From Gemmatimonas sp. (lineage in GTDB: Bacteria; Gemmatimonadota; Gemmatimonadetes; Gemmatimonadales; Gemmatimonadaceae), in assembly GCF_021298855.1 (NCBI RefSeq), contig NZ_JAJTHI010000020.1:1-64000 (forward strand): a stretch of 64,000 nt of DNA. Reading direction: 5' to 3'. Below are positions 1,567 through 30,022 of the stretch, piece after piece. Made by a program: the position numbers and the translations under genes. Position 1 is the stretch's first letter. Each line of letters starts with the position of its first letter. Under the pieces are notes generated by a model. The model saw nothing but the letters and a program-made list of their open reading frames with translations, was not told the origin of the DNA and made no database searches.

Positions 1567-2292
1567 TCAGTCGGCGAAGATCAGGGAGCCGCTCTGACAC
1601 CGTTGGTCGGAGCCATCGTCGCCACGGATGCAGAGGCCCCCGGTCGCGGCAATCCCCGTGACCGTGCCCGCCGCGGGGGCCGTCACGCGGCGCCCCACCG
1701 CCGCATCGCGCGCCTTCCATGCCGCCAATTCGGCCGCCGAGAGGGGACCGATAGCGGACGCGGCGCGGCGCAGCGCCGGCGCCACCGCCTCCAGCAACGC
1801 CTCGCGCGACACATCCGGACGCACGGCGATCGTCGCGGGAAGATCCGCCGGCACCCGCCGATTGATGCCGACGCCGATCGCGACCCAATCGGGGCGCGCT
1901 CCGCGCCAGCGCGCTTCAATGAGCACCCCGGCCAGCTTCCGGCGCTCGACCAGCAGGTCATTGGGCCACTTGAGCGAGATGCGACCGTCCACGCACGACG
2001 CGAGCGCCGTGGCCAGTTCGAGTCCGACACGCAACGCCAGCACCTCCACCGCGCCACTGTCGGTGGGCCGCTCGATGAGGGTGCACCACAACCCCGCATC
2101 GGGTTCGGATATCCACGACTTGCCACCCCGACCACGACCCGCCGCCTGCGACGCCGCCACCACGAGCGTCCCCGCGGGCGCGCCCTCCGCGGCGAGGGCG
2201 TGCGCCACGTCCATCGTGGAGGTGACCTGCCCGTGGAACTCGAGGCGCGCCAGGCCAAGGCGCGCCGCCAGCGAGGGCGCGGGAGCGGTCAC
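1567..2292 (-). CDS. birA: Biotin--[acetyl-CoA-carboxylase] ligase, short form without DNA-binding domain
   Basis: Makes biotinyl-AMP and transfers biotin to the carrier lysine of biotin-dependent carboxylases; cytoplasmic. The 241-residue protein holds only catalytic and C-terminal domains: the biotin/ATP loop GRGRGGKSW near residue 52, KWPNDLLV near 107, KLAGVLIE near 118, and a C-terminal SH3-like part. The N-terminal winged helix of E. coli BirA is missing, so it should not act as a repressor. It starts with GTG at 2292, 7 nt after uppP, and is the last gene of the long run that begins at moxR. The 124 nt between it and the groES promoter hold a weak inverted repeat (1489-1495 with 1519-1525) but no clear terminator. 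Confidence 0.93.
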   Translation of the reverse strand: MTAPAPSLAARLGLARLEFHGQVTSTMDVAHALAAEGAPAGTLVVAASQAAGRGRGGKSWISEPDAGLWCTLIERPTDSGAVEVLALRVGLELATALASCVDGRISLKWPNDLLVERRKLAGVLIEARWRGARPDWVAIGVGINRRVPADLPATIAVRPDVSREALLEAVAPALRRAASAIGPLSAAELAAWKARDAAVGRRVTAPAAGTVTGIAATGGLCIRGDDGSDQRCQSGSLIFAD

Positions 2293-2299
2293 GCGCGCA

Positions 2300-3106
2300 T
2301 CAGGCGCCGCGCGTCGCCAGCGTGTAGAACACCACGCCCGCCAGCAGCACGCGATAGAGGGCGAAGATGCCGAAGCTGTGCTTGCTCACGTATCGCAGCA
2401 GTACCGTGATGGCGAGCCAGCTGCTCACGGCCGCCGCGATCACACCGTAGAAAAGCGGCACCGACACCCCATCGGTTCTGAACGCCTCGGGGGCCTCCTT
2501 CACGACGGCGGCCAGGGTGATGGGCATGCTCATGAGGAAGCTGAAGCGCGCCGCACTCGGCCGGTCGAGATGCAGCAGGCGTCCGGCGGTGATGGTTGAC
2601 CCCGAGCGCGAGACACCCGGTACCAGCGCCAACACCTGCGCGCATCCCACGATGATGGCATCACGCATGGTGATCTCCTCGATGTTGCGCGCGCGGACAC
2701 TCCACTTGTCGATGGCCCAGAGCAGGATGCCCAGCACGATGAGCGTCGTGCCAATGATGTACGGCGAGCGGAAGGTGGTCTTGGCGAGATCGTTGAGCAA
2801 CAGCCCGCCGATCCCGGCAGGGATGGTGGCGACGATGAGATACAGCAGGCGGCGCTCGTGCGCGGTCTCGATGCGCCGCGTGCGCGCGATGCGGAACGCG
2901 CTGCGGGTCATGTCGATCCACTCGACCCGGAAGTACCACATGAGCGCCATGAGCGTACCAAGGTGCAAGGCCACATCGAATGACAGCCCGGGATCCTTCC
3001 AGCCAAGCAGATAGGGGGTCAGCGCAAGATGTGCCGAACTGGACACGGGGAGCAGTTCGGTCACGCCCTGCACGAGACCGAGCACGATGGCCTGAAAGAT
3101 CGTCAC
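2300..3106 (-). CDS. uppP: Undecaprenyl-diphosphatase UppP/BacA
   Basis: Integral membrane phosphatase that turns undecaprenyl-PP into undecaprenyl-P, recycling the lipid carrier for peptidoglycan and other envelope polymers. At 268 residues it has the normal length and both signature regions: GVTELLPVSSSAHL near residue 14 and PGVSRSGSTIT near 163, plus about seven hydrophobic segments. Its ATG overlaps the bshA stop by four bases (ATGA at 3103-3106), which implies translational coupling. It is followed by birA after 7 nt. Confidence 0.96.
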   Translation of the reverse strand: MTIFQAIVLGLVQGVTELLPVSSSAHLALTPYLLGWKDPGLSFDVALHLGTLMALMWYFRVEWIDMTRSAFRIARTRRIETAHERRLLYLIVATIPAGIGGLLLNDLAKTTFRSPYIIGTTLIVLGILLWAIDKWSVRARNIEEITMRDAIIVGCAQVLALVPGVSRSGSTITAGRLLHLDRPSAARFSFLMSMPITLAAVVKEAPEAFRTDGVSVPLFYGVIAAAVSSWLAITVLLRYVSKHSFGIFALYRVLLAGVVFYTLATRGA

Positions 3107-4302
3107 GAGGGAACGGAAAGGGTGGGAAGCGGCGCCACGCCGCCATCGGTGTCCGGACCGGCAGTCGCCGGTGCCGTCCCGACAGTGCGTTCGTAGAGCG
3201 CTTCGTACTGCGCCACGATCGCCGCCTCACTGAAGCGCGTCCGCGCGTCAGCAGCAGCGGCGGAACTCATGGCCTGCCATCGCACGGGATCGGCAAGCAA
3301 CTGGATGCCCGCCTGCGCCATGCTCTCGACGTCCCCCACGGGGAAGAGAAACCCGGTTTCCCCGTGTCGGACGACCTCGGGGAGGCCGCCGGCGTGCGCA
3401 CCGATCACCGGCACGCCGGTGGCCAGGGCCTCGAGGGCACTGAGGCCGAACGACTCCTTGTCGCTGGTGAGGAGAAACAGATGCGCCCCGGCGAGCAACG
3501 GAGCGATCGTGTCGATCTTGCCGAGGAAGTGGACGTGCTCGCTCACCCCCAGCTCCCGGGCCTCGGCCTCGGCCTCCACGCGCTCGGGACCGTCGCCGAC
3601 CATGATGAGCACCGACGGGACGTCCCGGTCGATCCGCGCGAAGGTGCGCACGATGTCGCGCACGCGCTTGACGGGCCGGAAGTTGGAGATGTGCATGATG
3701 ACCTTCCGCCCCCGCGTGACATCCGCGGGGATGGGAAACACGTGGCGCGAACGGTCGTACAGCGAAGGATCGATGAAATTGGGAATGACCTCGACCTGAC
3801 AGCCGACGCAACCGAACGCCCGATACGTCTCATCGCGCAGGTACTCGGACACGGCCGTGACCGCGTGCGACTTCTCGATCGAGAACTTCGTGATGGAGAA
3901 GAACGACCGTTCCTGTCCCACGATGGTGATGTCGGTCCCGTGCAGCGTGGTCACCACCTTCACGTCTCGCCCTTCCTCTCGCAGCATGGACCGGGCAATC
4001 CACGCGCTGGTGGCGTGCGGAATGGCGTAATGGCAATGCAACACATCGAGCTGATGATCGCGCACCACTTCGTGCATGCGCACGGCCAGGGCGAGGTCGT
4101 ACGGCGGATACTCGAACAACGGGTACCGCCCCACGTCCACCTCGTGGAAGTAGACGCGGGGCAGGAAGCTGGGGAGACGGAACGGCTGCGCGTACGTGAT
4201 GAAGTGCACCTCGTGCCCGCGAGCGGCGAGGGCAATCCCGAGTTCGGTGGCCAGCGCCCCCGATCCGCCATACGTGGGATAGCAGGTAATGCCGATCTTC
4301 AT
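3103..4302 (-). CDS. bshA: GT4 glycosyltransferase, N-acetyl-alpha-D-glucosaminyl L-malate synthase type (BshA)
   Basis: Probably joins GlcNAc from UDP-GlcNAc to L-malate, the first step of bacillithiol synthesis. The 399-residue protein starts at the ATG at 4302: MKIGITCYPTYGGSGALATE, the BshA-type start with ELGIALAARGHEVHFIT and HCHYAIPHATSAW. It continues with FRPVKRV and the GT-B donor site DKESFGLSALEALATGVPVIG. The frame is open upstream, but that part overlaps miaA. It overlaps miaA by four bases (ATGA). No bshB (PIG-L deacetylase) or bshC lies in the window, so the thiol pathway is inferred from this gene alone. Another GT4 substrate is possible but less likely given the N-terminal match. 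Confidence 0.85.
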   Translation of the reverse strand: MKIGITCYPTYGGSGALATELGIALAARGHEVHFITYAQPFRLPSFLPRVYFHEVDVGRYPLFEYPPYDLALAVRMHEVVRDHQLDVLHCHYAIPHATSAWIARSMLREEGRDVKVVTTLHGTDITIVGQERSFFSITKFSIEKSHAVTAVSEYLRDETYRAFGCVGCQVEVIPNFIDPSLYDRSRHVFPIPADVTRGRKVIMHISNFRPVKRVRDIVRTFARIDRDVPSVLIMVGDGPERVEAEAEARELGVSEHVHFLGKIDTIAPLLAGAHLFLLTSDKESFGLSALEALATGVPVIGAHAGGLPEVVRHGETGFLFPVGDVESMAQAGIQLLADPVRWQAMSSAAAADARTRFSEAAIVAQYEALYERTVGTAPATAGPDTDGGVAPLPTLSVPS

Positions 4303-19055: not shown

Positions 19056-20297
19056 TCAGAACGCCGCCAACTCTCCCCCGCACCGCTCGCAGTACCACTC
19101 GGTGGGCAGGTTCATCGTGCTGCACTCGGTGCAGCGCAACGTCTTCTGTGGCTCGGCCGAGGCAGCGGTGGTGGGGGCAGCGCTGCCGAACGGACCGGCC
19201 CCTGGCGGCGCCGATTCGGGGGCCCCATTGGGATCGATGACCGATCGCAGAAACGCCAGATCGTCGAACGGATCGGCGGCCTTGGGGGCGGGCTTGGGGG
19301 TCACGGTTGCGGTGGAGCGCTCCCGGCGGGTGTCGTGTTCGGGCTCGATGCCCTGCAGCGACTGCACGAACTGCGCGTCGGCCGGCCCCGTGGCGCTGCC
19401 GAACATGGCCAACGCCTGGTCCACCTCGGCCTGCTGGGCCACCGCCTCCGCCGACAGCGCCGGCGTGGCGATGGGCGCTGCCGAGGGAGCGGCGGGTGAC
19501 GACCGCTCCGGCTCCGGGACGGCCGCAAGGCTCGAGGTGTTGAAGAGCGCCACCACGTCGGCGAGCACGCCTTCGTGGCGCGCCGCCGCAGGCACGGGGG
19601 TATCGGCCATCCCCGGCCCATCGATATCGAGCAGGGGCGGCTCTGGTTCCGTGGCGGCACGCTCTTCTTCCGCGGGGGAACGAACGAGGGATGTGGGCTC
19701 GAGGGAGAGCGTGACGACCGGTGTGGGGACCGACGCCTCGAGCGGAGGCTGCGCCTCGGCAACGGGTGCCGGCGCGGCTGCCGGATTGCTCGGCTGCTTG
19801 TCGGAGAGGGGGGGCGATCCTTCAGGCAGCGGCGCCAGTGTCGCCACGGTCGCCCCGACCGCCGGCTCGGCCTTGGGCTCGACGCGGGCGCTCGCCAGCA
19901 ATGCGCGCACATCCTCCACTTCTGCCAACAGCGTGCCGCGTTCCTCACCGAGCGTACCGATGCGGGCCTCGATGTCCTGCCGCACCGCGTCCCAGCGCTC
20001 GTGGTCGTACTCGCCCACCAGATTGCGCAGCATCCCTTCGGCGAGTTCTTCTTCCAGCGCCGACAGTCGTCCTTCGAGGTCACCGAGTCGCTGCTCGATT
20101 TCACCGCCGAACGCGGCGAGGGCGCCCACGTGCGCCCGGAGCTGCGTCAACACCCCCGTGCGACGGGCCACGTAGTCCCCGTGGACCCGTTCGAATACGC
20201 GAGCGGGGGTCTCGGCGCGCTTGGCCTCGAGGGCAGCAAGCCACTCGTCATAGCGCTGGCGCTCCGCGACCAGCGCGCGCACTTCTTCGATGGACAC
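19056..20297 (-). CDS. Coiled-coil protein with disordered middle and C-terminal zinc ribbon, function unknown
   Basis: A 413-residue protein I cannot assign to a family. Residues 1 to about 140 are charged and predicted helical/coiled coil (LEGRLSALEEELAEGMLRNL, DIEARIGTLGEERGTLLAEV). About 145-380 is Pro/Ala/Glu-rich and probably disordered. The last 27 residues form a zinc-ribbon-like C-x2-C-x10-C-x2-C (CTEC to CERC). The GTG start at 20297 has GGAG about 9 nt upstream. It is a single gene facing rpsT. The 249 nt behind it, up to pyrC, contain nothing I can name. A scaffold or regulatory role is only a guess. Confidence 0.8.
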   Translation of the reverse strand: MSIEEVRALVAERQRYDEWLAALEAKRAETPARVFERVHGDYVARRTGVLTQLRAHVGALAAFGGEIEQRLGDLEGRLSALEEELAEGMLRNLVGEYDHERWDAVRQDIEARIGTLGEERGTLLAEVEDVRALLASARVEPKAEPAVGATVATLAPLPEGSPPLSDKQPSNPAAAPAPVAEAQPPLEASVPTPVVTLSLEPTSLVRSPAEEERAATEPEPPLLDIDGPGMADTPVPAAARHEGVLADVVALFNTSSLAAVPEPERSSPAAPSAAPIATPALSAEAVAQQAEVDQALAMFGSATGPADAQFVQSLQGIEPEHDTRRERSTATVTPKPAPKAADPFDDLAFLRSVIDPNGAPESAPPGAGPFGSAAPTTAASAEPQKTLRCTECSTMNLPTEWYCERCGGELAAF

Positions 20298-20546
20298 GAC
20301 GGCTACTCCGCGAGGATGGACAAGGGGTGAACTCCGGAAAGCTCACGGGGACGAACGGATGACGCTAGCACCACCTGCCTGACTGCCGACGATGAGCGGC
20401 ACCCGCTGTCACGCCGAGGAGAGTGACGGACGTTACCGCTTCGCTCGCGGCGCCATGGAATGTGACACCATGAACCGGGAGCGCACGCCCCGCCAGCCGC
20501 GCAGCGTGACCGGCGTCACCCCGCGCGTCCCCTCCCGCAGGACCGG

Positions 20547-21845
20547 TCAGGCGCTGTAGACGAGGCGGCCGCCGACCACAGTATGTACCGCCTGTCCGGT
20601 AAACGCATGACCGGCGTACGGCGTGTTCCGCCCTTTGGACTTGAAGCGCGTGGGATCACAGCTCCAGCTGCGCGACGGATCGAAGATGGTGACGTCGGCG
20701 AGGGCGCCCCGGGCGAGCGAGCCCCCCGGCAAGCGGAAGATCTTCGCCTGCTTGCAGCTCATGGCATCGACCAGTTGCGACAGCGAAATGATGCCGCGGT
20801 GCAGCAGGTACGTGGTGTTGACCGCCAGCGCCGTCTCGAGCCCCACGATGCCATTGGGGGCATCGGCGAACTCACGTTCCTTCTCATCGTAGTGGTGCGG
20901 CGCGTGGTCGGTGACGAGCAGGTCGATGGTGCCATCGGCCACGCCCTGCTGCAGTGCCTCCACATCCTCGGCGGTGCGGAGCGGCGGGTTCATCTTGGCG
21001 TTGGTGTTGTAGCCGTCCACCGCCTCTTCCGTGAGGGAGATGTGGTGCGAGCACACCTCGGCGGTCACGTTGATGCCACGCTCCTTGCCCCACCGCACCA
21101 GCTCGACCGAGCCCTTGGTGCTGAGGTGGCACAGGTGAATGTGCCCGCCGGTGCGCTTGGCCAGCAGGATGTCCCGAATGACGTAGATCTCCTCGGCCTC
21201 GGCCGGGATGCCCTTGAGCCCGAGCTTGGCGCTCATGATGCCCTCGTTCATGCTGCCACCGCGCGCGAGCGTCATGTCTTCGCAGTGCTCGGCAATGGGC
21301 ACATTGAAGGCGCGCGCGTACTCGAGGGCCGTGCGCATGAGCTGCGCACTTTCCACCGGCTTGCCGTCGTCGCTGAAGGCCACCGCGCCCGCGCTCACCA
21401 TTTCGGCAATCTCGGCGAGTGTTTCCCCCTTCTGGCCCACCGAGATGGCGCCGTACGGGTACACGCGCGCGAGCCCGGCGTTCTCCCCCTGGCGCTTCAC
21501 GAAACCCACCACCGCCTGATTGTCGGTGACCGGCTTGGTGTTGGGCATGGCGCACACGGCGGTGATGCCCCCGGCCACGGCGCTGTGCGCCCCCGACGCC
21601 ACGGTCTCCACGTCTTCGCGTCCCGGTTCGCGCAGGTGCACATGCACATCGATGAAACCCGGTGCGACCACGAGGCCGGAGGCGTCGAGCACCTCTGCCC
21701 CATCGGGCGTGCCGAGTGAACCGCCGCAGGCCTCCACCACGCCATGGCGCAGCAGCACATCGCCCACGGCATCGAGCCCCTGCGAGGGATCGATGATGCG
21801 TCCGCCCTTGATGAGCAGGTCGCGCGTTCCGATCGGGTGCGCCAT
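20547..21845 (-). CDS. pyrC: Dihydroorotase
   Basis: Third step of pyrimidine synthesis, carbamoyl-aspartate to dihydroorotate; a cytosolic zinc amidohydrolase. At 432 residues it is the class I (long) type. Metal ligands and motifs are GFIDVHVHLREPG near 64, SDDGKP, EHCED, HLCHLSTKGSVELV and the catalytic TDHAPHHYDEK. The start ATG follows the pyrB stop directly (TAAATG). It is last in pyrR-pyrB-pyrC. The common partner for ATCase in other bacteria, an inactive PyrC, is not the case here: all ligands are present. Confidence 0.96.
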   Translation of the reverse strand: MAHPIGTRDLLIKGGRIIDPSQGLDAVGDVLLRHGVVEACGGSLGTPDGAEVLDASGLVVAPGFIDVHVHLREPGREDVETVASGAHSAVAGGITAVCAMPNTKPVTDNQAVVGFVKRQGENAGLARVYPYGAISVGQKGETLAEIAEMVSAGAVAFSDDGKPVESAQLMRTALEYARAFNVPIAEHCEDMTLARGGSMNEGIMSAKLGLKGIPAEAEEIYVIRDILLAKRTGGHIHLCHLSTKGSVELVRWGKERGINVTAEVCSHHISLTEEAVDGYNTNAKMNPPLRTAEDVEALQQGVADGTIDLLVTDHAPHHYDEKEREFADAPNGIVGLETALAVNTTYLLHRGIISLSQLVDAMSCKQAKIFRLPGGSLARGALADVTIFDPSRSWSCDPTRFKSKGRNTPYAGHAFTGQAVHTVVGGRLVYSA

Positions 21846-22805
21846 TTATGCGTTTCCTTTCTTGGCTGCTTCAGCCAGTTCAGGCTTGCCACCGGCAAGC
21901 AGGTAGAGCACCGCCATGCGAACGGCCACCCCATTGGTGACCTGGTCGAGAATCACCGAATGCGGACCATCGGCGACATCACTGTCGATCTCGACGCCGC
22001 GATTCATGGGACCGGGGTGCAGGATGAGCAGATCGCGCGACGCCTTCTCGAGGCGCGCGCTGGTGACGCCGAAGACGCGATTGTATTCGCGCAGCGACGG
22101 GATGTAGCCGGCCTGCATGCGTTCGAGCTGCAGGCGCAGCACGTTGAGCGCATCGGCCCACTCGATGGCTTCCTCGATGCGGTTGAACACCGAGACCCCC
22201 ATGGCCTCGATGGCATTGGGGAGCAGCGACCGCGGGCCGCACACCGCCACCTCGGCGCCGAGCTTGGTGAGCCCCCAGATGTTCGAGCGCGCCACCCGCG
22301 AGTGGAGCACGTCGCCCACGATGCAGATGCGCTTGCCCGCGAGGTCGCCGAACCGATCGCGCAAGGTGAGCAGGTCGAGCAGTGCCTGCGTGGGGTGCTC
22401 GTTGGTCCCGTCGCCCGCATTGATCACATTCGACTCGATGCGCTCGGCGAGGAACTGCGCCGCACCGGAGGCCCCGTGGCGGATGACGACCATGTCGATC
22501 TTCATGGCCTCGAGATTGCGCGCGGTATCGACGAGCGTCTCACCCTTGCTCACACTGGAGCCGGCCGACGCCACGTTCACGGTGTCGGCGCTGAGCCGCT
22601 TCTCGGCGAACTCGAAGGAGATGCGCGTGCGCGTGGAGGCTTCGAAGAACAGGTTGACGATGGTGGCGCCGCGCAGCGTGGGCACCTTCTTGATGGCGCG
22701 CTCGGAGATCTCGCGAAACGGCACGGCGGTGTCGAGCACCAGCCGGATCTGCTCGGCGGAGAGCGGCGCGAGTCCCAGCAGATCCTTGCCGAGGGGGCCA
22801 GGCAC
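21846..22805 (-). CDS. pyrB: Aspartate carbamoyltransferase catalytic subunit
   Basis: Joins carbamoyl phosphate and aspartate, the committed pyrimidine step. The 319-residue protein has the carbamoyl-phosphate site [13 protein letters not shown] near 54, [25 protein letters not shown] and [14 protein letters not shown]. No pyrI regulatory subunit is found, so control is likely at expression level through PyrR and by enzyme association with PyrC as in other class A-type systems (inference). The start lies 3 nt after pyrR. Confidence 0.97.
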
Positions 22806-22808
22806 GGG

Positions 22809-23360
22809 TCAGCTCTCCTCGTCGCGGGAGACGATGAGCACTTCGTCGCGGCCATCGAGTTCCTCGATGCACACATCCACGCGCTGACCGGCGGCGACAT
22901 CGATGCGGCGCCCCACGATGTCGGCGTGGATGGGGAGCTCGCGCCCCCCGCGATCCACGAGGACCGCGAGCGCAATGCGCGCCGGCCGACCAAAGTCGGC
23001 CAATTCGTCGAGCGCGGCGCGCACGGTGCGTCCGGTGTACAACACGTCGTCCACGATGACCACACGCTGATCATCGAGTGCCCAGGGCAGCGAGGTCGCC
23101 CCGACGACGGGGCGCGGCCCCACCGTTTGCAGGTCGTCGCGGTAGAGCGTGATGTCGAGCGCCCCGGAGGCCACCGTGACCCCTTCCTGTGCCGCGATGA
23201 TGCGGACGATGCGCTCGGCGAGTTGCACGCCGCGGCGTTGAATGCCGACGATGACGAGGTTGTCGCAGCCGGCGTTGAGCTCGATGATCTGGTCGGCCAT
23301 GCGACGCAACGTGCGGTCGAGCGCACGTGCGTCCAGCACGGTGGTTGGCTTCCTTGGCAT
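22809..23360 (-). CDS. pyrR: Bifunctional pyr operon regulator / uracil phosphoribosyltransferase PyrR
   Basis: A 183-residue PRTase-fold protein from the ATG at 23360. The PRPP loop VVIVDDVLYTGRTVRAALDE lies near 99-118, and VIVGIQRRGVQLAERI is the PyrR-type N-terminal loop. In Firmicutes it binds pyr mRNA and attenuates transcription; in other phyla it can act at translation or only as an enzyme. I found no PyrR-binding consensus in its leader, only a GC-rich hairpin at 23391-23420. It heads pyrR-pyrB-pyrC. Confidence 0.95.
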   Translation of the reverse strand: MPRKPTTVLDARALDRTLRRMADQIIELNAGCDNLVIVGIQRRGVQLAERIVRIIAAQEGVTVASGALDITLYRDDLQTVGPRPVVGATSLPWALDDQRVVIVDDVLYTGRTVRAALDELADFGRPARIALAVLVDRGGRELPIHADIVGRRIDVAAGQRVDVCIEELDGRDEVLIVSRDEES

Positions 23361-23390
23361 GGCGGACAAGTTAACAGCGCCACGCACGAA

Positions 23391-23420
23391 GCGGCGGGCG
23401 CCCCCCCGGACGCCCGCCGC
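23391..23420. terminator. GC-rich hairpin between the 158-residue gene and pyrR
   Basis: Perfect 10-bp stem (23391-23400 with 23411-23420) and a 10-nt loop. No U run follows. It could terminate the upstream gene or belong to a pyr leader; no alternative antiterminator pairing is evident. Confidence 0.5.
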
Positions 23421-23460
23421 TCCCCTACCCTTACGTCCTACGTGGAGATCCGGCCATTGC

Positions 23461-23937
23461 CTACCATTCGTGGTGCGATCGCGGCTGCTCGTTGGGCTTG
23501 GGCTTGGGCGACCAGAGACCATGCAGCGGCGACAGATGCCGGGCGGCGGTACGCGCGGCCCGGAGCCGTGCCTTGTCGATGGGCGGCACGTACGAGGTGG
23601 CTGCGTACATGGCGATGTCGGCGGCCGCCTCCATGGTGGCCTGCGCGAAGCCGAGCGACCAGTCCGGGCCGTACGGGTGCGAATCGGCACGTTCCTCGAC
23701 GCCACGTCCGAAGGCCACGCACTTGTCGGCCGCTTCCTTGAGCGAGCGGCTCGAGGCCAGGTGCGCCACCACCACATGCAGTCCGTCCCGTCGTCCCATG
23801 TGATACGTGGGCGACTGGAGCGCATCGCTGGCCGGCGCCTCGACCACCCCCGTGGCAATCCCCGTCAGCAGCACGCAGTGTTGCGAGAAGTAGCTGCGAA
23901 TGGGATCGACCGGTGGTTCTTCGAGGATCGGGGACAT
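23461..23937 (-). CDS. Conserved-looking 158-residue protein of unknown function
   Basis: I do not recognise it. The frame shows the strong third-position G/C preference of neighbouring genes, which supports it being real. The protein starts MSPILEEPPVDPIRSYF, has no signal peptide or membrane helix, and includes an amphipathic middle (AHLASSRSLKEAADKCVAFG) and a basic tail ending SHHEW. It contains two Cys and several His. It lies on the same strand as the ATP-grasp pair, 246 nt downstream, and 100 nt before pyrR. The 246-nt spacer has several GC hairpins but no RNA family I could recognise. Confidence 0.6.
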   Translation of the reverse strand: MSPILEEPPVDPIRSYFSQHCVLLTGIATGVVEAPASDALQSPTYHMGRRDGLHVVVAHLASSRSLKEAADKCVAFGRGVEERADSHPYGPDWSLGFAQATMEAAADIAMYAATSYVPPIDKARLRAARTAARHLSPLHGLWSPKPKPNEQPRSHHEW

Positions 23938-24183
23938 GGCTGGTTCCGGCAGAATGGTGTCCTACGGTCGCGGCAATTGCCGCCTTCACCACGCCGGTAG
24001 GGCAAGCGGTGTGCCGCCGTCGGGGCCTTCGGCCCAGCGCCTGTTTCCCTCTGAACACGCCAGTTTTCGGTGCCGGCGCGGCCGGCCGGGACCGCCGGAC
24101 GTTGCAACAACACGACCGGCAGTGCGGCGTGTGCGCCACACCCACCGGCGGCGCTGCGGTCTCTGCAGGCGCCCGACGGCAGG

Positions 24184-25410
24184 TCAGCTCGCGTACAGGT
24201 GCAGGTCGGTCCCCACGAAGTCGGCGAGCGCCTTGCACGTGTCCCAATCGGGGTGCCGAAGGGTCACGTAACCGTCCGACAGCAGCGTGCTCTTCCAGTC
24301 GCGACGGGGCGTGCCAACCGGCAGGAGATCGATGGCGCAGAGGGCATCGCCCAGCCGGCTCTTGATGCGATCCAGCCCTTCGATGCGCTGGATGCGCCCC
24401 TGACCGTGCGCCCGCTTCGTGATGCAGGCGCAGTTGTACTTTCGCTCGACGACCGGGGAGAAGGTGCCGTGCAGTTCGGCCTCGGCCCATCCGGCGAACA
24501 GGTCGATGTCACTGGCGAAGTTCATCAGGTCCACGGTGCGGGCGCCGGGCGGGCGGGCACCGATTTCCCCGAAGACCACTTCGCCGTCGGACTTGCGGTA
24601 CCATTCCATATGCGTGAACCCGGTGTCGTAGCCGAGCACCCGAATGACCTGCTCCCCAAGGGCGATGCCGTCGGTCACCCAGGGGTTGTCGACATGGCGG
24701 TACGAAAGCGTCTGGGGCGAGATCCACTCATTGGTGCGGGCAATGAGCGGCCGCGGGCGGTAGTGTCCCACGTGGAAATACTTGATCTCACCGCCGGCGC
24801 AGATCGTGTCGTAGGTGAACTCCTCGCCGTCGATGAACTCTTCCACGTCGACGGTTTCAATGTGGCCGAGCTGACGGATGGCCGCCGCCACCTCCGTGGC
24901 GTCGTCGCAGCGGAAGGTGTCCATGGACCCGGCGCCGGCGATGGGCTTGATGATGAGGGGATAGCCGACCACTTCGGCGGCCGCCCACACCTCGGCCGCG
25001 CTGCTGGCCACGGCGTGATGGGGGACCCGTACCCCGCCCTCGGCCAGCGCCTGCTTCATGAGGTCCTTGTTGCGGAACTTGACCGCCTGCGCGAAGCGCT
25101 GGCCGGGCACGTCGAACGCCTCCCGCAGGTGGGCCGCCAGCTCGACGCCCGGCTCCCAGAGGCAGCAGACGCGATCGAGCGTGCGGCTGCCCAGCCACCG
25201 ACGGATCTGCAGGATGGCGCTGGCCGTATCGCTGAAGAGGTCGGGCACCTGCAGATAGTCGCTGAGATGCCGGCGTGCCATTTCCGGCAGGTCCTGGGCC
25301 GGTCCATTCGCCACCCCCAGCACCTGCGCCCCCTGCAGGGACAGCCCGCGCGTGAAGAGCGGCATTTCCCCGGGGAACCCCGGGGTGATCATGAGAACGG
25401 TCTGCGACAT
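24184..25410 (-). CDS. ATP-grasp domain carboxylate-amine ligase-like protein (first of tandem pair)
   Basis: A 408-residue protein with an N-terminal Rossmann-like part (VLMITPGFPGEMPLFTRGL) and a central ATP-grasp fold. The fold shows KFRNKDLMKQALAEGGVRVPHH, the ATP-lysine strand YPLIIKPIAGAGSMDTF, EEFIDGEEFTYDTICAGGEI, and the metal-binding strand GEVVFGEIGARPPGA. ATP-grasp ligases join a carboxylate to an amine or thiol through an acyl phosphate; the substrates here are unknown. It resembles the next gene in domain order and in the EIxARPPGA motif, so the two look like ancient duplicates. It ends 246 nt before the 158-residue gene. Confidence 0.85.
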   Translation of the reverse strand: MSQTVLMITPGFPGEMPLFTRGLSLQGAQVLGVANGPAQDLPEMARRHLSDYLQVPDLFSDTASAILQIRRWLGSRTLDRVCCLWEPGVELAAHLREAFDVPGQRFAQAVKFRNKDLMKQALAEGGVRVPHHAVASSAAEVWAAAEVVGYPLIIKPIAGAGSMDTFRCDDATEVAAAIRQLGHIETVDVEEFIDGEEFTYDTICAGGEIKYFHVGHYRPRPLIARTNEWISPQTLSYRHVDNPWVTDGIALGEQVIRVLGYDTGFTHMEWYRKSDGEVVFGEIGARPPGARTVDLMNFASDIDLFAGWAEAELHGTFSPVVERKYNCACITKRAHGQGRIQRIEGLDRIKSRLGDALCAIDLLPVGTPRRDWKSTLLSDGYVTLRHPDWDTCKALADFVGTDLHLYAS

Positions 25411-25462
25411 GGAATCCCGATGAACGGTCGGAGGAGGGTGAGGCGGGAGCGGGAGGACGCCC

Positions 25463-26680
25463 CTACCTCAGCACCACGCGGATAGTGGAGATGATACGCG
25501 CGAGCGCGGCCTGCACCACCCCGGTGTCGGGATGTCGCACGATCATGAACCCCTCACCCTCGTAGCTCCCGGTGGGTGACTGGCCCAGGTGCGGCAGGCG
25601 GTAGTCGCAGATGAGGTGCCCCCACTCACGCTGCACCTGGTCGAGTCCCTCGACGGCGGCCACAGTGCCCTGCCCCTGGCCCCGCAGGTAGGCCGTCCCC
25701 ACGGCGTAGCGGCGCTCGGGAGGCGTGAACGTGCCGTCCACCATGAGGCGTACCCAGGCGCCGACAAAGTCCATGTCGTTGGCCCGCGAAATCATCGTGG
25801 TCATGTTGGCCCCCGGCGGGCGGGCGGCGATCTCGCTCACCGCGACGGAGCCGTCGGGACGCCGGAACCACTCGCAATGCGAGACCCCCGTGGTCATGCC
25901 CAGTGCACGCAGCGCCCGATCCCCCACGGCGCGGATATCGGCGTAGGCGGGATCATCCACCTCCCGGGGCAACAGCACCGTCCACTGTATCCACGGCGTC
26001 TCCAATACCTCGAGCGGCGTGGGCGCGTAGCGGGTGAGCGAGTGCCAGACGGCGTGTCCGTTGATGCTCACCGTTTCCAGGGAGTGCTCGGTACCGCGCA
26101 GGAACTCCTCGGCGAGCATGGGATCGTGCGCCGACGGGGCGTAGCGCTGCAGCACCTGCTCGAGTTCAGCCACGGTGCGCACCCGTTCCGTGGCCTTGGC
26201 CCCAGCACCGGCGGGCGGCTTGACCACAATGGGGAAGCCCACCTCGTGCACGAAGCGCCGCGCGTCGGCCGCTTCGTGCACGAGCTGGTGCCGCGCCACC
26301 GGCACGCCGGCGGCGCGCAGGACGTCCTTCATGCGGGCCTTGTCGCGGAAGTTGTGCGCCGCGGCGGCCGGCAGCCCGGGGATGCCCAGGCGCTCGCGCA
26401 CCTGCGCCAGCGGGAGCTGGCACTGCTCATAGGCCGCGAAGCAGCGGGCCACGGCACCGTGGGCGGCGGCAATGGCGCTCACGGCCCCCGCCAACTGATC
26501 GGCGTTCGTGACATCGGCCACCTGCCAGTGTGCCACCAGTCGCGAGCCCACGGCGGGGGCAAGCTCCGCCAGCGGCTGCTGCGCGACAACGGCGAGGCGG
26601 ACATGTGTCAGGTTCAGGGCCGCCTCGATCATCTGGGTGGCGGCCGGCGAGAAGAACGGACAGACAAAGATGACGAGCAT
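25463..26680 (-). CDS. ATP-grasp domain carboxylate-amine ligase-like protein (second of tandem pair)
   Basis: A 405-residue protein from the ATG at 26680. It begins MLVIFVCPFFSPAATQMIEA. The ATP-grasp part has NFRDKARMKDVLRAAGVPVARH, FPIVVKPPAGAGAKATERV, EEFLRGTEHSLETVSINGH and the catalytic strand GSVAVSEIAARPPGANMTTM. The order and motifs parallel the neighbouring ATP-grasp gene, but sequence divergence is large. The start overlaps the M28 peptidase stop by one base (TGATG), which implies coupled translation with the peptidase. Peptide or amino-acid ligation is inferred from the family; no carrier protein or precursor peptide is visible nearby. Confidence 0.85.
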   Translation of the reverse strand: MLVIFVCPFFSPAATQMIEAALNLTHVRLAVVAQQPLAELAPAVGSRLVAHWQVADVTNADQLAGAVSAIAAAHGAVARCFAAYEQCQLPLAQVRERLGIPGLPAAAAHNFRDKARMKDVLRAAGVPVARHQLVHEAADARRFVHEVGFPIVVKPPAGAGAKATERVRTVAELEQVLQRYAPSAHDPMLAEEFLRGTEHSLETVSINGHAVWHSLTRYAPTPLEVLETPWIQWTVLLPREVDDPAYADIRAVGDRALRALGMTTGVSHCEWFRRPDGSVAVSEIAARPPGANMTTMISRANDMDFVGAWVRLMVDGTFTPPERRYAVGTAYLRGQGQGTVAAVEGLDQVQREWGHLICDYRLPHLGQSPTGSYEGEGFMIVRHPDTGVVQAALARIISTIRVVLR

Positions 26681-28275
26681 CAACGCTCCAACTTGAACCC
26701 CGGATCGATGCCCGGGCGCTTGGGGGCATTCGCCACGAACCATCCGGTGAGATACATCCACTGGGTCATGCGCGTGAGCTTGGGATAGTCGATCCGATCC
26801 GGCTTGTCACGCGGCGTATGGTAGTCATCGTGCAGATTGGTGGTATACATGACCGCCGGGACGTTGAGCCGTGCATACGGGACGTGGTCGCTGCGGAAGT
26901 ACCACCCTTCGGGGTGCATGGGACGGTCCCAGAGCGAGTCGAGCGAGAACTTGCCGGTCAGGGCGTTGGCCCGAAGCGCCATGTCCACCAGCTCCGTCGA
27001 ATTGCGATGCGGCGGCTGCACGCCGAGCAGGCTGGCGGAGTCCGGGTGGTTGCGGCCCATCATTTCGCCGTTGAGCACGGCCACGATGCTGGCGAGCGGC
27101 ACCACGGGGTGCGCGGCGTGCCACCGGGATCCCAGCAGACCACGCTCCTCGGCGCCGTGATACACGAAGAGCACCGAGCGCTTGCCGGGCTGTCTGGCGA
27201 ACGCGCGCGCCGCGGCCAGCAGCGCCACACTGCCCGTACCGTTGTCATCGGCCCCCGCCCACACGGAATCGCCGTCGATCAGGTACCGCACCCCATCGTG
27301 ATCCTGGTGGGAGCTGTACAGGACGTATTCGTTGCGCAGGACCGGATCGGTGCCGCGGATGACGCCCACGATGTTGGTGCTGGGGGTCTCGAAACGTTCG
27401 AGTCGCACCTGCAGCGTGAGCGTGGGGGCCTGCTGGAGGCGAGCCGCCATATCGCCACGCACGAGGAATGCGGGAGTCCCGGCCTGGCGTGCGGGCACCG
27501 GCAGCTCGGCCCGGTTCGATTGATTGGCGAAGCGGCGTGCGGCGCCATCCACGTCGTAGGTTCCCCGCGCCCGCAGCATGGCCAGGGGATCGAAGGCGCG
27601 ATCGGCCACCGTATCTGCCACGATGAGCAGCGCGAGCGCCCCCCGTCGAGCGAAGCGCTGCTGCATGGCCGCCACGGCGGCCTGGGTGTAGCGCACTTCC
27701 GGACTGTTGGTCGTGGTCCGGATGCTGGCCGAAAAGGGGCGAAGCATGGGCGTGGCGACGACCTTGCCGCGCACGTCAACGGTAGAATCGGCACTGTTGG
27801 CAATCCACACCACGGGCCCCTGCACGTCGGCGCCCGCACTCCCCAGGGGAATGAAATCCTTCCACACCTGCAGCGGCTGCTCACCGAGGGTGCCCATGGA
27901 CGAAACCGTGGACACGCGCGTGCGGTACATGGTGAACCACTGAAAGTACGACCCGTCATCGCCCAACGGCTTGACGCCGATGGTGCGCAGCTGCTCCGCC
28001 ACCCACACGGAGGCGCGCATTTCATCGGGGGTGCCGGCTTCGCGGCCGCGCATGGCATCGCTGGCCATGGCGTACAGATCGCGCCGGATGTCCGCCTCAC
28101 GGATGAGGGCGTAGGCGGCGGGGAGCTGGCCTGCACGTGCCGAGCGCGGCGGACCTGCCTGTGCGCCGAGCGGGCTGAACGTCCACGCGGGCAACGCCAT
28201 CGCGACAGAGAGGAGTGCTGCGGCACACGTGCGCGTGGTCACGGTCGCGTGCTTGGGGCGCAGGGATCTGGGCAT
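26680..28275 (-). CDS. Secreted M28 family zinc aminopeptidase
   Basis: A 531-residue exported peptidase. After a signal peptide (AALLSVAMALPAWTFSPLGAQA) comes an N-terminal part and an inserted PA-like region. The di-zinc M28 core has SSHQDHDG (His and Asp), GADDNGTG (bridging Asp), EERGLLGS (catalytic Glu pair), NGEMMGR and HDDYHTPRDKP (last His). All zinc ligands of the family seem present. I use the ATG at 28275; a TTG at 28293 is possible. A TAGCGT hexamer lies 5 nt before this ATG, so the message may be leaderless. It is coupled to two ATP-grasp ligases, which suggests paired breakdown and joining of small peptides (inference). Confidence 0.9.
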   Translation of the reverse strand: MPRSLRPKHATVTTRTCAAALLSVAMALPAWTFSPLGAQAGPPRSARAGQLPAAYALIREADIRRDLYAMASDAMRGREAGTPDEMRASVWVAEQLRTIGVKPLGDDGSYFQWFTMYRTRVSTVSSMGTLGEQPLQVWKDFIPLGSAGADVQGPVVWIANSADSTVDVRGKVVATPMLRPFSASIRTTTNSPEVRYTQAAVAAMQQRFARRGALALLIVADTVADRAFDPLAMLRARGTYDVDGAARRFANQSNRAELPVPARQAGTPAFLVRGDMAARLQQAPTLTLQVRLERFETPSTNIVGVIRGTDPVLRNEYVLYSSHQDHDGVRYLIDGDSVWAGADDNGTGSVALLAAARAFARQPGKRSVLFVYHGAEERGLLGSRWHAAHPVVPLASIVAVLNGEMMGRNHPDSASLLGVQPPHRNSTELVDMALRANALTGKFSLDSLWDRPMHPEGWYFRSDHVPYARLNVPAVMYTTNLHDDYHTPRDKPDRIDYPKLTRMTQWMYLTGWFVANAPKRPGIDPGFKLER

Positions 28276-28383
28276 ACCCAACGCTACGGCCAAAGTCGCT
28301 TTGGCGCTGGGGGGGTGGCGCCGGCGCAGGATACGGCGTCAGGCCGGACTCGTGATGGCCGCGGCCGACGGTAGATTTCCCGC

Positions 28384-29181
28384 ATGACCGAGTCCCCGTA
28401 CATCCAGGACATCACCACGGCGTCGTTCCTCGAGGCCGTCGTCACGCGATCGCACAGCACGCCGGTGCTGGTGGATTTCTGGGCCACCTGGTGCGGCCCG
28501 TGCCGCGCGCTCGGGCCGGTACTGGAGAAGCTGGCCGTGGAGTACGACGGCGCCTTCGTGCTGGCCAAGGTGGACACCGACCGGGAGCAGGCGCTGGCGA
28601 TGCAGTTCCAGATCCGCTCGATTCCCACTGTCATGCTGTTCAAGGATGGCAAGGCGGTCGCCGGGTTTCCGGGAGCGCTGCCGGAGGGCCAGATTCGCGC
28701 CTTTCTCTCACAGCAGGGTGTGCACAGGGGCGACCGGGCGGAGGTGTGGGCCGACGATCCCGTGGCGCGGGTGGCGCAATTGCAGGCGGCCGTGTCAGCG
28801 GACGGCGCACGCGACGACCTTCGGCTCGAGCTAGCGCTGTCGCTCCTGCAGGCTGGCGAGTGGGCCACGGCCGGGAAGGCCCTGGAGGCGCTGCCGGCGG
28901 CGCTGTACGGCGACGCGCGGGCCGTGCGAGCGCGCGCGACGCTGGCCCTGCGCGAACAGGTGGCGCATCTGCCCGAGGTCGATCCCGTACGGCGCGGCCT
29001 CGAGGCGGTGCTGGCCGGTGCGGCGCCGGAGGGTCTCGCCCAGCTACTCGAGGCGCTCCGTGACCAAAAAGGCGACGACGCTGCGCCCGCCAAGGAGGCG
29101 CTGGTGGCAGCACTGCAGTACCTGGACGATGAGGCGCTGGTGCGCGAGACGCGGCGGAAGATGGCGGCGGTGCTGTTCTAG
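28384..29181 (+). CDS. CnoX/YbbN-like chaperedoxin: thioredoxin domain plus TPR-like C-terminus
   Basis: A 265-residue cytosolic protein. Residues 1-110 form a thioredoxin domain with an intact WCGPC active site (Cys37, Cys40) and cis-Pro in RSIPTVMLFKDG. Residues 115-265 are helical and TPR-like (DLRLELALSLLQAGEWATAG). This is the YbbN/CnoX layout. E. coli CnoX passes clients to GroEL/ES, and forms with WCGPC are also redox active; by family logic it may work with the groESL of this window. It is divergent from the M28 gene. TAGATT sits 6 nt before the ATG and no ribosome site is seen, so it may be leaderless. Confidence 0.88.
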   Translation: MTESPYIQDITTASFLEAVVTRSHSTPVLVDFWATWCGPCRALGPVLEKLAVEYDGAFVLAKVDTDREQALAMQFQIRSIPTVMLFKDGKAVAGFPGALPEGQIRAFLSQQGVHRGDRAEVWADDPVARVAQLQAAVSADGARDDLRLELALSLLQAGEWATAGKALEALPAALYGDARAVRARATLALREQVAHLPEVDPVRRGLEAVLAGAAPEGLAQLLEALRDQKGDDAAPAKEALVAALQYLDDEALVRETRRKMAAVLF

Positions 29182-29230
29182 CGGGGGGCTGGCCGCAGTC
29201 GATGGAGAGGGGAGCGGCCCGCGCGTGGCC

Positions 29231-29255
29231 CCCGGGAGCGGTCCGTGCTCCCGGG
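29231..29255. terminator. Hairpin between convergent thioredoxin and outer-membrane genes
   Basis: Stem of 9 bp, CCCGGGAGC (29231-29239) with GCTCCCGGG (29247-29255), loop of 7. There is no U tract. It sits in the 90-nt gap between two convergent genes. Confidence 0.6.
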
Positions 29256-29271
29256 CCGTGCGACGAGCCCT

Positions 29272-29907
29272 TCAGAACCTCCCGAACCGAAACACCAGGG
29301 TGCCGCTGGCGCCGCTCAGCCGCTTGTCGGCAAGCCGGTCGGACTCGCTGCCGAACGCCGCGCGATAGCCGCCGGCTGCGCCCACACGAAACCACTGCGT
29401 CACGTTCAGCTCCAAGGCGACCTGGGGCTCGACGACGCCGAAGGTGTCATCGGCGTCGTTCCGGTCGCGCGGACGCATGGCGTCGGGGTAGACCGACACG
29501 GTGCCGCCGCCGAGCAGCGCGCCGATCGTGGCATGCACGAGTCGTGAGGGGCGGGTGATGATCTCGAAGGTCACCCCGCCGTAGCCGATGTCCATTTCGC
29601 CGCGCCGACGAGTACCGTCGAACACCGCGTCCACCGCTCGCGTGCCCGCGAACCCGGCACCGCCGATGGCGAATCGCCGGTCGATGAGGAACGCACCACC
29701 GGCGCCACCCATGACCATGGTCTCACCGGCGACGGTGGTGACGCGGGCCATCGGGCCACCGAAACCACCGAATTGCCTGGTCCCCGACCGGATGAGCGTC
29801 TGGTCCTGCGCCAGCAGTGTCGACGGTGAGATACCGAGAACGAACAGGAACCCCATTGCCGCGACCCTTCGGCGGGGACCACGAATGGATGCAATCGATG
29901 CCATCAT
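29272..29907 (-). CDS. Small exported protein, outer-membrane beta-barrel candidate
   Basis: A 211-residue protein with a signal peptide (MGFLFVLGISPSTLLAQ) and alternating, glycine-rich strands (GGAGGAFLIDRRFAIGGAGFA, MDIGYGGVTFEIITR, VEPQVALELNVTQWFRVGAAGGYR). It ends LVFRFGRF with a C-terminal aromatic residue, as in outer membrane barrels. I do not recognise a named family. I chose the first of two adjacent ATGs (29907), which has GGAG 9 nt upstream; an inner ATG at 29856 would still give a good signal peptide. It has a single-gene setting downstream of the tRNA pair. Confidence 0.7.
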   Translation of the reverse strand: MMASIASIRGPRRRVAAMGFLFVLGISPSTLLAQDQTLIRSGTRQFGGFGGPMARVTTVAGETMVMGGAGGAFLIDRRFAIGGAGFAGTRAVDAVFDGTRRRGEMDIGYGGVTFEIITRPSRLVHATIGALLGGGTVSVYPDAMRPRDRNDADDTFGVVEPQVALELNVTQWFRVGAAGGYRAAFGSESDRLADKRLSGASGTLVFRFGRF

Positions 29908-30022
29908 GCCAAACTGCTCCGTCTGAGGGAATAGCTCCACCTGAGGCCAACCGCCCCCGGTATCTCAGCGTACGGAGAGCCTGAGAGACAGGTTTCGCCG
30001 GTTCCTCTTCCCCCAAATGAGA

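What the first reader, a model, noticed from the sequence alone, without database searches (positions are those of the whole stretch)
23461..28275. Tandem ATP-grasp ligases coupled to a secreted M28 peptidase, plus an orphan protein
Seen: M28 peptidase and the first ATP-grasp gene share one base (TGATG); a second, parallel ATP-grasp gene follows 52 nt later, then an unassigned 158-residue gene. Both ligases keep the EIxARPPGA metal-binding motif. Known: ATP-grasp pairs make dipeptides, RiPP modifications or amino-acid conjugates. Inference: the module may build a small peptide or conjugate inside and trim or recycle it outside.
Basis: partly seen in the sequence, partly recalled or inferred. 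Interest (0 to 1): 0.55.

Follow-up and report, generated by a model that had tools for sequence, protein, structure and literature searches.

The report
Conserved pair of peptide-bond ligases
Two adjacent bacterial genes encode enzymes that probably join amino acids, and relatives in other phyla carry the same pair among further joining and cutting enzymes and, in most loci examined, glycogen genes, which points to an uncharacterised small-molecule pathway; the neighbouring peptidase does not seem to belong to it.

Summary
The genes are as described, all on the minus strand. The two ATP-grasp genes are a true pair: in 249 genomes of the window's phylum, 43 of 43 with the first gene (AGA) have the second (AGB) directly downstream, and 7 of 7 loci from a second collection (Planctomycetota, Acidimicrobiia, Gemmatimonadaceae, one unassigned) keep both. 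Both look like active L-amino-acid ligases (AGA model: Z 36 to RizA, 35 to BL00235).

The rest of the proposed module fails. M28 lies within 2 nt of AGA in 3 of 9 loci of this clade and was not found in 19 loci outside it. The 158-residue gene is clade-specific, with its own sigma-54-type element (9 of 9 loci).

Elsewhere the pair sits among further ligases (AG4, and AG3 or CPAG+GCS2), peptidases (S51 or C26), two PF00756 esterases and alpha-glucan genes. The window's genome has a match to each core part, on three contigs. The cassette markers AG3 and CPAG exclude each other (11 vs 32 of 43). GlgA is within 20 kb of AGA or AG4 in 33 of 40 pair genomes that have GlgA, and in 0 of 15 pairless ones.

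Best reading: a multi-ligase pathway that builds and recycles a small peptide or amino-acid conjugate, linked to glycogen. Product unknown.

The parts
25463..26680 (-). AGA: first ATP-grasp gene, 405 aa, L-amino-acid-ligase-like
   Evidence: Pfam PF02222; joint profile A3 finds RizA 4wd3 E 8e-38 and BL00235 3vot E 8e-31; AF2 model pLDDT 93.8, VIA Z 36.3 to RizA; own clade in tree, support 100/99
24184..25410 (-). AGB: second ATP-grasp gene, 408 aa, paralogue of AGA (about 31% identical)
   Evidence: directly downstream of AGA in 43 of 43 genomes; PDB hits 4wd3 E 6e-18, 3vot E 8e-18; identity; own clade in tree, support 100/100; 44 positions conserved at 90% or more in both AGA and AGB, incl. 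K115, K155, H267, E269, E282, R286
23461..23937 (-). ORF158: clade-restricted gene of unknown function; neighbour, perhaps a separate transcription unit
   Evidence: no Pfam/NCBIfam match; 14 of 249 genomes, only genera g1 and g21; AF2 model poor, pLDDT 62
24002..24016 (-). sigma-54-type -24/-12 element CGGCACACCGCTTGC, starting 79 nt before the ORF158 ATG
   Evidence: present in 9 of 9 clade loci (two pairs of these are close relatives) in an otherwise diverged gap; background 0.039 per 400 nt; the pattern alone is not rare in the window, 1 match against 0.70 expected; RpoN domain PF04552 in 20 of 20 genomes tested
26680..28275 (-). M28 peptidase (signal peptide by eye only); neighbour, not part of the conserved module
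   Evidence: PF04389 E 8e-37; gap to AGA varies from -1 to 2843 nt in 7 clade loci, not found in 19 loci outside the clade

Best explanation
AGA and AGB are two non-redundant ATP-dependent amino-acid ligases that act one after the other: one activates an amino-acid carboxylate as an acyl phosphate and joins it to an amine to give a dipeptide or amide, and the other extends that product or joins it to a third partner. They are part of a larger pathway whose other enzymes are a RimK/Ddl-like ligase (AG4), two PF00756 esterases (EstA, EstB), and one of two ligase-peptidase cassettes: CPAG+GCS2+C26 (suggesting a gamma-glutamyl linkage) or AG3+S51 (suggesting an aspartyl or similar linkage). The product, a small peptide or amino-acid conjugate, is made and recycled in the cell in connection with alpha-glucan (glycogen) metabolism. 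In the window's genus the pathway is split over three places in the genome. Shown: gene content, pairing, exclusivity of AG3 and CPAG, co-occurrence, fold of AGA and conserved catalytic residues. Inferred: activity, the order of the two ligases, the linkages, the product and the physiological role.
For: Pairing 43 of 43. All 7 genome-contig loci keep AGA-AGB. Of the 45 genomes matched, 45 have AG4 and 44 EstB, although AG4 is in only 72 and EstB in 70 of 249 genomes; all 70 EstB genomes have AG4. AG3 in 11 and CPAG in the other 32 of 43 AGA genomes, no overlap. The window's genome holds AG4-CPAG-C26-GCS2 on C46 with GH57-GlgA-phosphorylase about 6 kb on, and EstB and an EstA relative on C20. 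Fold and catalytic residues of L-amino-acid ligases. AGA, AGB and AG3 form separate, strongly supported clades, each with members from three phyla. A paired-ligase precedent exists: PnaC makes dipeptides and PnaB joins them to phosphonoalanine (PMC11867202, passages read).
Against: No product, substrate or expression data. The glucan link is genomic only: 16 of 72 AG4 genomes and 4 of the 45 matched genomes had no GlgA match, though one of the four, G194, has a GlgA fragment at a contig end. In the window's clade the pair itself is over 150 kb from GlgA or on another contig. Kinship inflates all P values. G218 keeps AGB without AGA, an assembly fault or a sign that AGB can work alone. The window's EstB and EstA are only 35% and 40% identical to the reference copies, so their roles in this pathway are less sure. 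S51, GCS2 and C26 were seen in loci but not surveyed genome-wide.
Confidence: 0.6

Rival explanations
1. The pair makes a short peptide natural product (antimetabolite-type di- or tripeptide) and the glucan genes are incidental neighbours.
For: L-amino-acid ligases of this type make bacilysin, rhizocticin and similar products (recalled), and paired ATP-grasp ligases make phosphonoalamides. Patchy distribution, AGA in 43 of 249 genomes.
Against: Alpha-glucan genes recur in 16 of 19 loci outside the window's clade, in three phyla. No transporter or warhead-forming enzyme is among the 20 neighbour proteins given to Pfam, but many other neighbours were not annotated.
Confidence: 0.2
2. A protein-modification or peptide-tagging system: AG4 (RimK-like) and the others add amino acids to a protein, perhaps a glycogen enzyme, and C26 or S51 removes them.
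For: AG4's best NCBIfam match is the RimK glutamate-ligase family, 43 bits, far below its 143-bit cut-off. Ligases lie beside peptidases.
Against: AGA and AGB resemble ligases of free amino acids and carry the E-I/V-x-x-R form seen in RizA and BL00235. AG4's match to RimK is weak.
Confidence: 0.12
3. The four genes form one local operon in which the secreted M28 peptidase trims or recycles the product.
For: One-base overlap of M28 and AGA here and in the nearest relative; 2-nt gap in a third.
Against: M28 is 617 to 2843 nt away in four clade members, not found in the L038 stretch, and in none of 19 loci outside the clade. ORF158 has its own sigma-54-type element.
Confidence: 0.05

Closest known systems
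L-amino-acid ligases RizA (4wd3), BL00235 (3vot), BacD/YwfE (3wnz)
   Same: Whole-length fold (Z 36, 35, 30), conserved E85, H268, E270, E283 and R287 with an E-I/V-x-x-R motif
   Different: Only about 20% identity; AGA always comes with AGB, and with AG4, esterases and peptidases; substrates untested
Phosphonoalamide ligases PnaC and PnaB (PMC11867202)
   Same: Two distinct ATP-grasp ligases acting in sequence to make a tripeptide (passages read)
YbdK-type carboxylate-amine ligase and C26 gamma-glutamyl hydrolase (PuuD-like)
   Same: GCS2 of the window's genome passes NCBIfam NF010039 (522 bits, cut-off 371); its C26 matches PRK11366 at 131 bits
   Different: C26 is below that model's cut-off (266); here both sit with AG4 and CPAG in one gene row
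Cyanophycin system (CphA and S51 cyanophycinase; recalled)
   Same: Ligases plus an S51-type peptidase for an amino-acid product; S51 matches PF03575 weakly
   Different: No CphA-type Mur-ligase domain among the 20 neighbour proteins scanned; S51 scores 21.4 and 24.6 bits around the 23.9 cut-off

Membership tests
L-amino-acid ligase (ATP-grasp) | ATP-grasp fold of the RizA/BL00235/BacD type over the whole length | tested here: met
   AGA model pLDDT 93.8; VIA Z 36.3, rmsd 3.1 over 373 residues to RizA; BL00235 Z 35.4; BacD Z 30.0, below 4dim, a purine-pathway-named entry, at Z 32.2. AGB not modelled; by sequence it hits the same ligases first
L-amino-acid ligase (ATP-grasp) | Catalytic Lys residues, Mg-binding Glu pair and Arg, and substrate-site Glu and His | tested here: met
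   K114, K154, E85, H268, E270, E283, R287 conserved in AGA, AGB and AG3 and aligned with RizA/BL00235. The roles of the individual residues are recalled
L-amino-acid ligase (ATP-grasp) | ATP-dependent dipeptide formation from free amino acids | not testable with these tools
   needs purified enzyme
Peptidase family M28 | M28 domain over the curated cut-off | tested here: met
   PF04389 127 bits, cut-off 21.3
Graspetide (RiPP) maturation | Conserved precursor peptide next to the ligase | tested here: inconclusive
   AGB-ORF158 gap (222-250 nt) poorly conserved apart from the sigma-54-type element; no systematic small-ORF search elsewhere
CP-ATP-grasp/alpha-E peptide-tagging system (recalled) | alpha-E domain and transglutaminase partners | tested here: inconclusive
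   none among 10 L045 and 10 type-II-locus proteins scanned; CPAG matches PF14403 below its cut-off and over its C-terminus only
Phosphonoalamide-type pathway | Phosphonate-forming enzymes | not tested
   not searched in the genome

The most novel reading that the evidence does not exclude
The module makes an alpha-glucan (glycogen or maltodextrin) that carries amino-acid or peptide groups: the ligases build the peptide, one of the PF00756 proteins transfers it to the glucan as an ester (as the PF00756 mycolyltransferases do with trehalose, recalled; a PS1 structure is among EstB's weak PDB matches), and the other esterase with C26 or S51 removes it, giving a combined carbon and nitrogen reserve.
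Probability: 0.15. Interest if true: 0.85.

Novelty: new variant of a known kind. Interest (0 to 1): 0.55.

Why it matters
By sequence alone these genes are just 'ATP-grasp proteins'. The comparison gives a defined set of enzymes, two alternative ligase-peptidase cassettes and a physical link to glycogen genes in three phyla, which makes the product testable by deletion and metabolomics. If the product is tied to glycogen, it would connect nitrogen-containing small molecules to carbon storage in several bacterial phyla.

Tried and rejected
M28 as partner: rejected on neighbourhoods. ORF158 as precursor or partner: no family; outside g1, g21 and g115 only one weak match (G283, 26% over 112 residues), with no module gene in its 15-kb stretch; profile search found 14 of 249. 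Its model is poor and Foldseek gave nothing at E 0.001. An Rfam RNA in 20000-30000: only three matches below gathering score. Sigma-70 promoters: none found; terminator-like sites not above shuffles. Sigma-54 elements before the other module genes: 5 of 180 upstream stretches, at background; one search lists scattered matches in 11 further loci, without a control. Plasmids: AG4 no match; AGA only matches under 60% identity, the listed ones about 26-30%.

Literature: searches. Among the papers listed (for some only 15 of 487 and 10 of 324), none describes this gene set by title and start of abstract. The library is open-access only. The 2009 amidoligase survey by Iyer and colleagues (recalled) is not held and may describe parts of it, so no claim of first description is made. 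PMC11915815 (passages) and PMC6920838 (listing only) were seen and not used.

The idea that the glucan link belongs to the AG4 core was dropped: it follows the pair instead.

Full report
What is in the window. On the minus strand lie, in order, an M28 peptidase (28275-26680), AGA (26680-25463), AGB (25410-24184) and a 158-residue ORF (23937-23461). The one-base overlap and the 52-nt gap are as described. Pfam assigns M28 to the first and ATP-grasp to the next two; ORF158 has no match in Pfam or NCBIfam. By eye, the genes after ORF158 look like pyrR, pyrB and pyrC (recalled; no family search run on them). The nearest named relative, L006, is a Gemmatimonadaceae MAG (AGA 72%, AGB 82%, ORF158 84% identical), so I call the window's phylum Gemmatimonadota.

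The pair is real and old. A search of 249 genomes of the phylum found matches to AGA (E 1e-30 or better) in 45. Of these, 43 hold AGA itself; G218 has only AGB, and G175 only AG3 on a 3.7-kb contig. In 43 of 43 AGA genomes AGB follows directly on the same strand, and in 11 of 43 a third copy, AG3, lies divergently upstream. Seven loci from the GTDB contig collection (one Gemmatimonadaceae, three Planctomycetota, two Acidimicrobiia, one unassigned) all keep AGA-AGB; that scan finds close relatives only. A maximum-likelihood tree of 63 sequences puts AGA (28), AGB (28) and AG3 (7) in three groups with support 100/99 or better, each with members from Gemmatimonadota, Planctomycetota and Actinomycetota. 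The duplications are thus older than these copies' spread; transfer between phyla is not excluded.

What the enzymes are. The joint profile of AGA, AGB and AG3 finds RizA (E 8e-38) and BL00235 (E 8e-31) first among solved structures. The AGA model (pLDDT 93.8, pTM 0.88) aligns with RizA at Z 36.3 (rmsd 3.1, 373 residues, 21% identity), BL00235 at 35.4, the purine-pathway-named 4dim at 32.2 and BacD at 30.0; other purine-pathway enzymes follow from 28.8. The metal motif E-I-x-A-R lacks the usual Asn (recalled), but so do RizA and BL00235 (EIAMR, EVGAR), so the change is normal for this group. AGA and AGB share 44 positions conserved at 90% or more, including the catalytic ones, and differ at 8 positions conserved within each: both look active and not redundant.

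Wider neighbourhood. I compared 28 loci: the window, all 7 and 20 chosen by me from the 43 AGA genomes. Nine belong to the window's clade and show only the pair with ORF158, and M28 in seven. Outside it, 8 of 19 have AG3, AGA-AGB and S51 and, where the contig reaches, EstA, AG4 and EstB; 7 of 19 have AGA-AGB, EstA, EstB, AG4, CPAG and GCS2, six of them also C26; in 3 more (L041, L044, L047) the AG4 block lies further along the same contig, and one (L007, an 8.8-kb contig) shows the pair with GlgA and GlgC. Alpha-glucan genes (GlgA, GlgC, phosphorylase or GH57) are in the fetched stretch in 16 of 19, not in L047, L048 and L049. Families. Many further neighbours grouped were not annotated.

Co-occurrence over the same 249 genomes. 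Matched to AGA 45, AG4 72, EstB 70, CPAG 59, GlgA 116. All 45 have AG4; 44 have EstB; all 70 EstB and 58 of 59 CPAG genomes have AG4. Among the 43 AGA genomes, 11 have AG3 and no CPAG, and 32 have CPAG and no AG3. So the pair goes with one of two ligases, which in the loci come with S51 or with GCS2 and C26; those three were not surveyed genome-wide. AG4 occurs without the pair in 27 genomes, and pairless loci L080-L086 hold most of the EstA-EstB-AG4-CPAG-GCS2-C26 set, so the pair is a gain on, or loss from, a wider core. These genomes are related, so the Fisher P values (down to 3e-60) only rank the associations.

Glucan link. Of 40 AGA genomes with GlgA, 33 have GlgA within 20 kb of AGA or AG4; of 15 AG4 genomes with GlgA and neither ligase of the pair, none does (0 of 16 with G218), P about 1e-8 without correction for kinship or contig length. 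A rough chance figure for one marker is 1.4%. In the window's clade the pair has moved away (0 of 13 within 20 kb), but AG4 stays near GlgA in 11 of 14. Against this, 16 of 72 AG4 genomes and 4 of the 45 gave no GlgA match; one of these four, G194, has a GlgA fragment at a contig end.

The window's own genome. AG4-CPAG-C26-GCS2 lie together on contig C46, with GH57-GlgA-phosphorylase about 6 kb further on, on the other strand; EstB (35%) and an EstA relative (40%) are about 24 kb apart on C20. So every core part has a match, in three places.

ORF158. It occurs in 14 of 249 genomes, all of genera g1 and g21 and all next to AGB; in the family sample 20 of 148 genomes have it clearly (g1, g21, g115) and one weakly. 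The gap before it is diverged except for CGGCAC-N5-TTGC, a sigma-54-type -24/-12 element (consensus recalled), found in 9 of 9 clade loci against a background of 0.039 per 400 nt. Window and L032, and L006 and L037, are close relatives, so these are about seven independent cases. In the window the pattern alone is not rare (one match, 0.70 expected); the evidence is its conservation. RpoN is present in 20 of 20 genomes tested.

M28. Found in 7 of 28 loci, all in the clade; the gap to AGA is -1, -1, 2, 617, 669, 678 and 2843 nt. L006 begins too close to AGA to tell; it was not found in the L038 stretch. It is a loose neighbour.

Mechanism and limits. By analogy with PnaC and PnaB (passages read) I propose that one ligase makes a dipeptide or amide and the other extends it; which is first is unknown. 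GCS2 with C26 suggests a gamma-glutamyl bond; S51 suggests another. The two PF00756 proteins could hydrolyse or transfer an acyl group; EstB keeps Ser138 and His243 in the 12 aligned copies (roles recalled). PMC2824669 (passages read) mentions peptide-glycan copolymers for an unrelated animal enzyme; it is context only. PMC9321006 (passages read) gives RizA's Arg-X specificity. Product, substrates and role remain to be tested.

Noticed in passing
window 24002-24016 (-): Sigma-54-type -24/-12 element conserved in 9 of 9 clade loci upstream of ORF158, itself just before genes that look like pyrR-pyrB-pyrC (by eye); whether the pyrimidine genes are co-controlled is unknown.
   Followed up: partly
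L093 (G218:C6) 2253-4201: AGB and ORF158 without AGA although 2.2 kb of upstream sequence is present; loss or assembly fault.
   Followed up: partly
L010 3880-4974 and L011 223-1320: A VWA-domain gene next to AG3 in two loci (one Planctomycetota, one unassigned), 88% identical between them.
   Followed up: no
G000:C49:51905-52618: A second glycogen-synthase-family match in the window's genome, on another contig than the module parts; several relatives also have two.
   Followed up: no
L080-L086: Pairless loci with most of the EstA, EstB, AG4, CPAG, GCS2, C26 set; in pairless AG4 genomes that have GlgA, none has it within 20 kb of AG4.
   Followed up: partly
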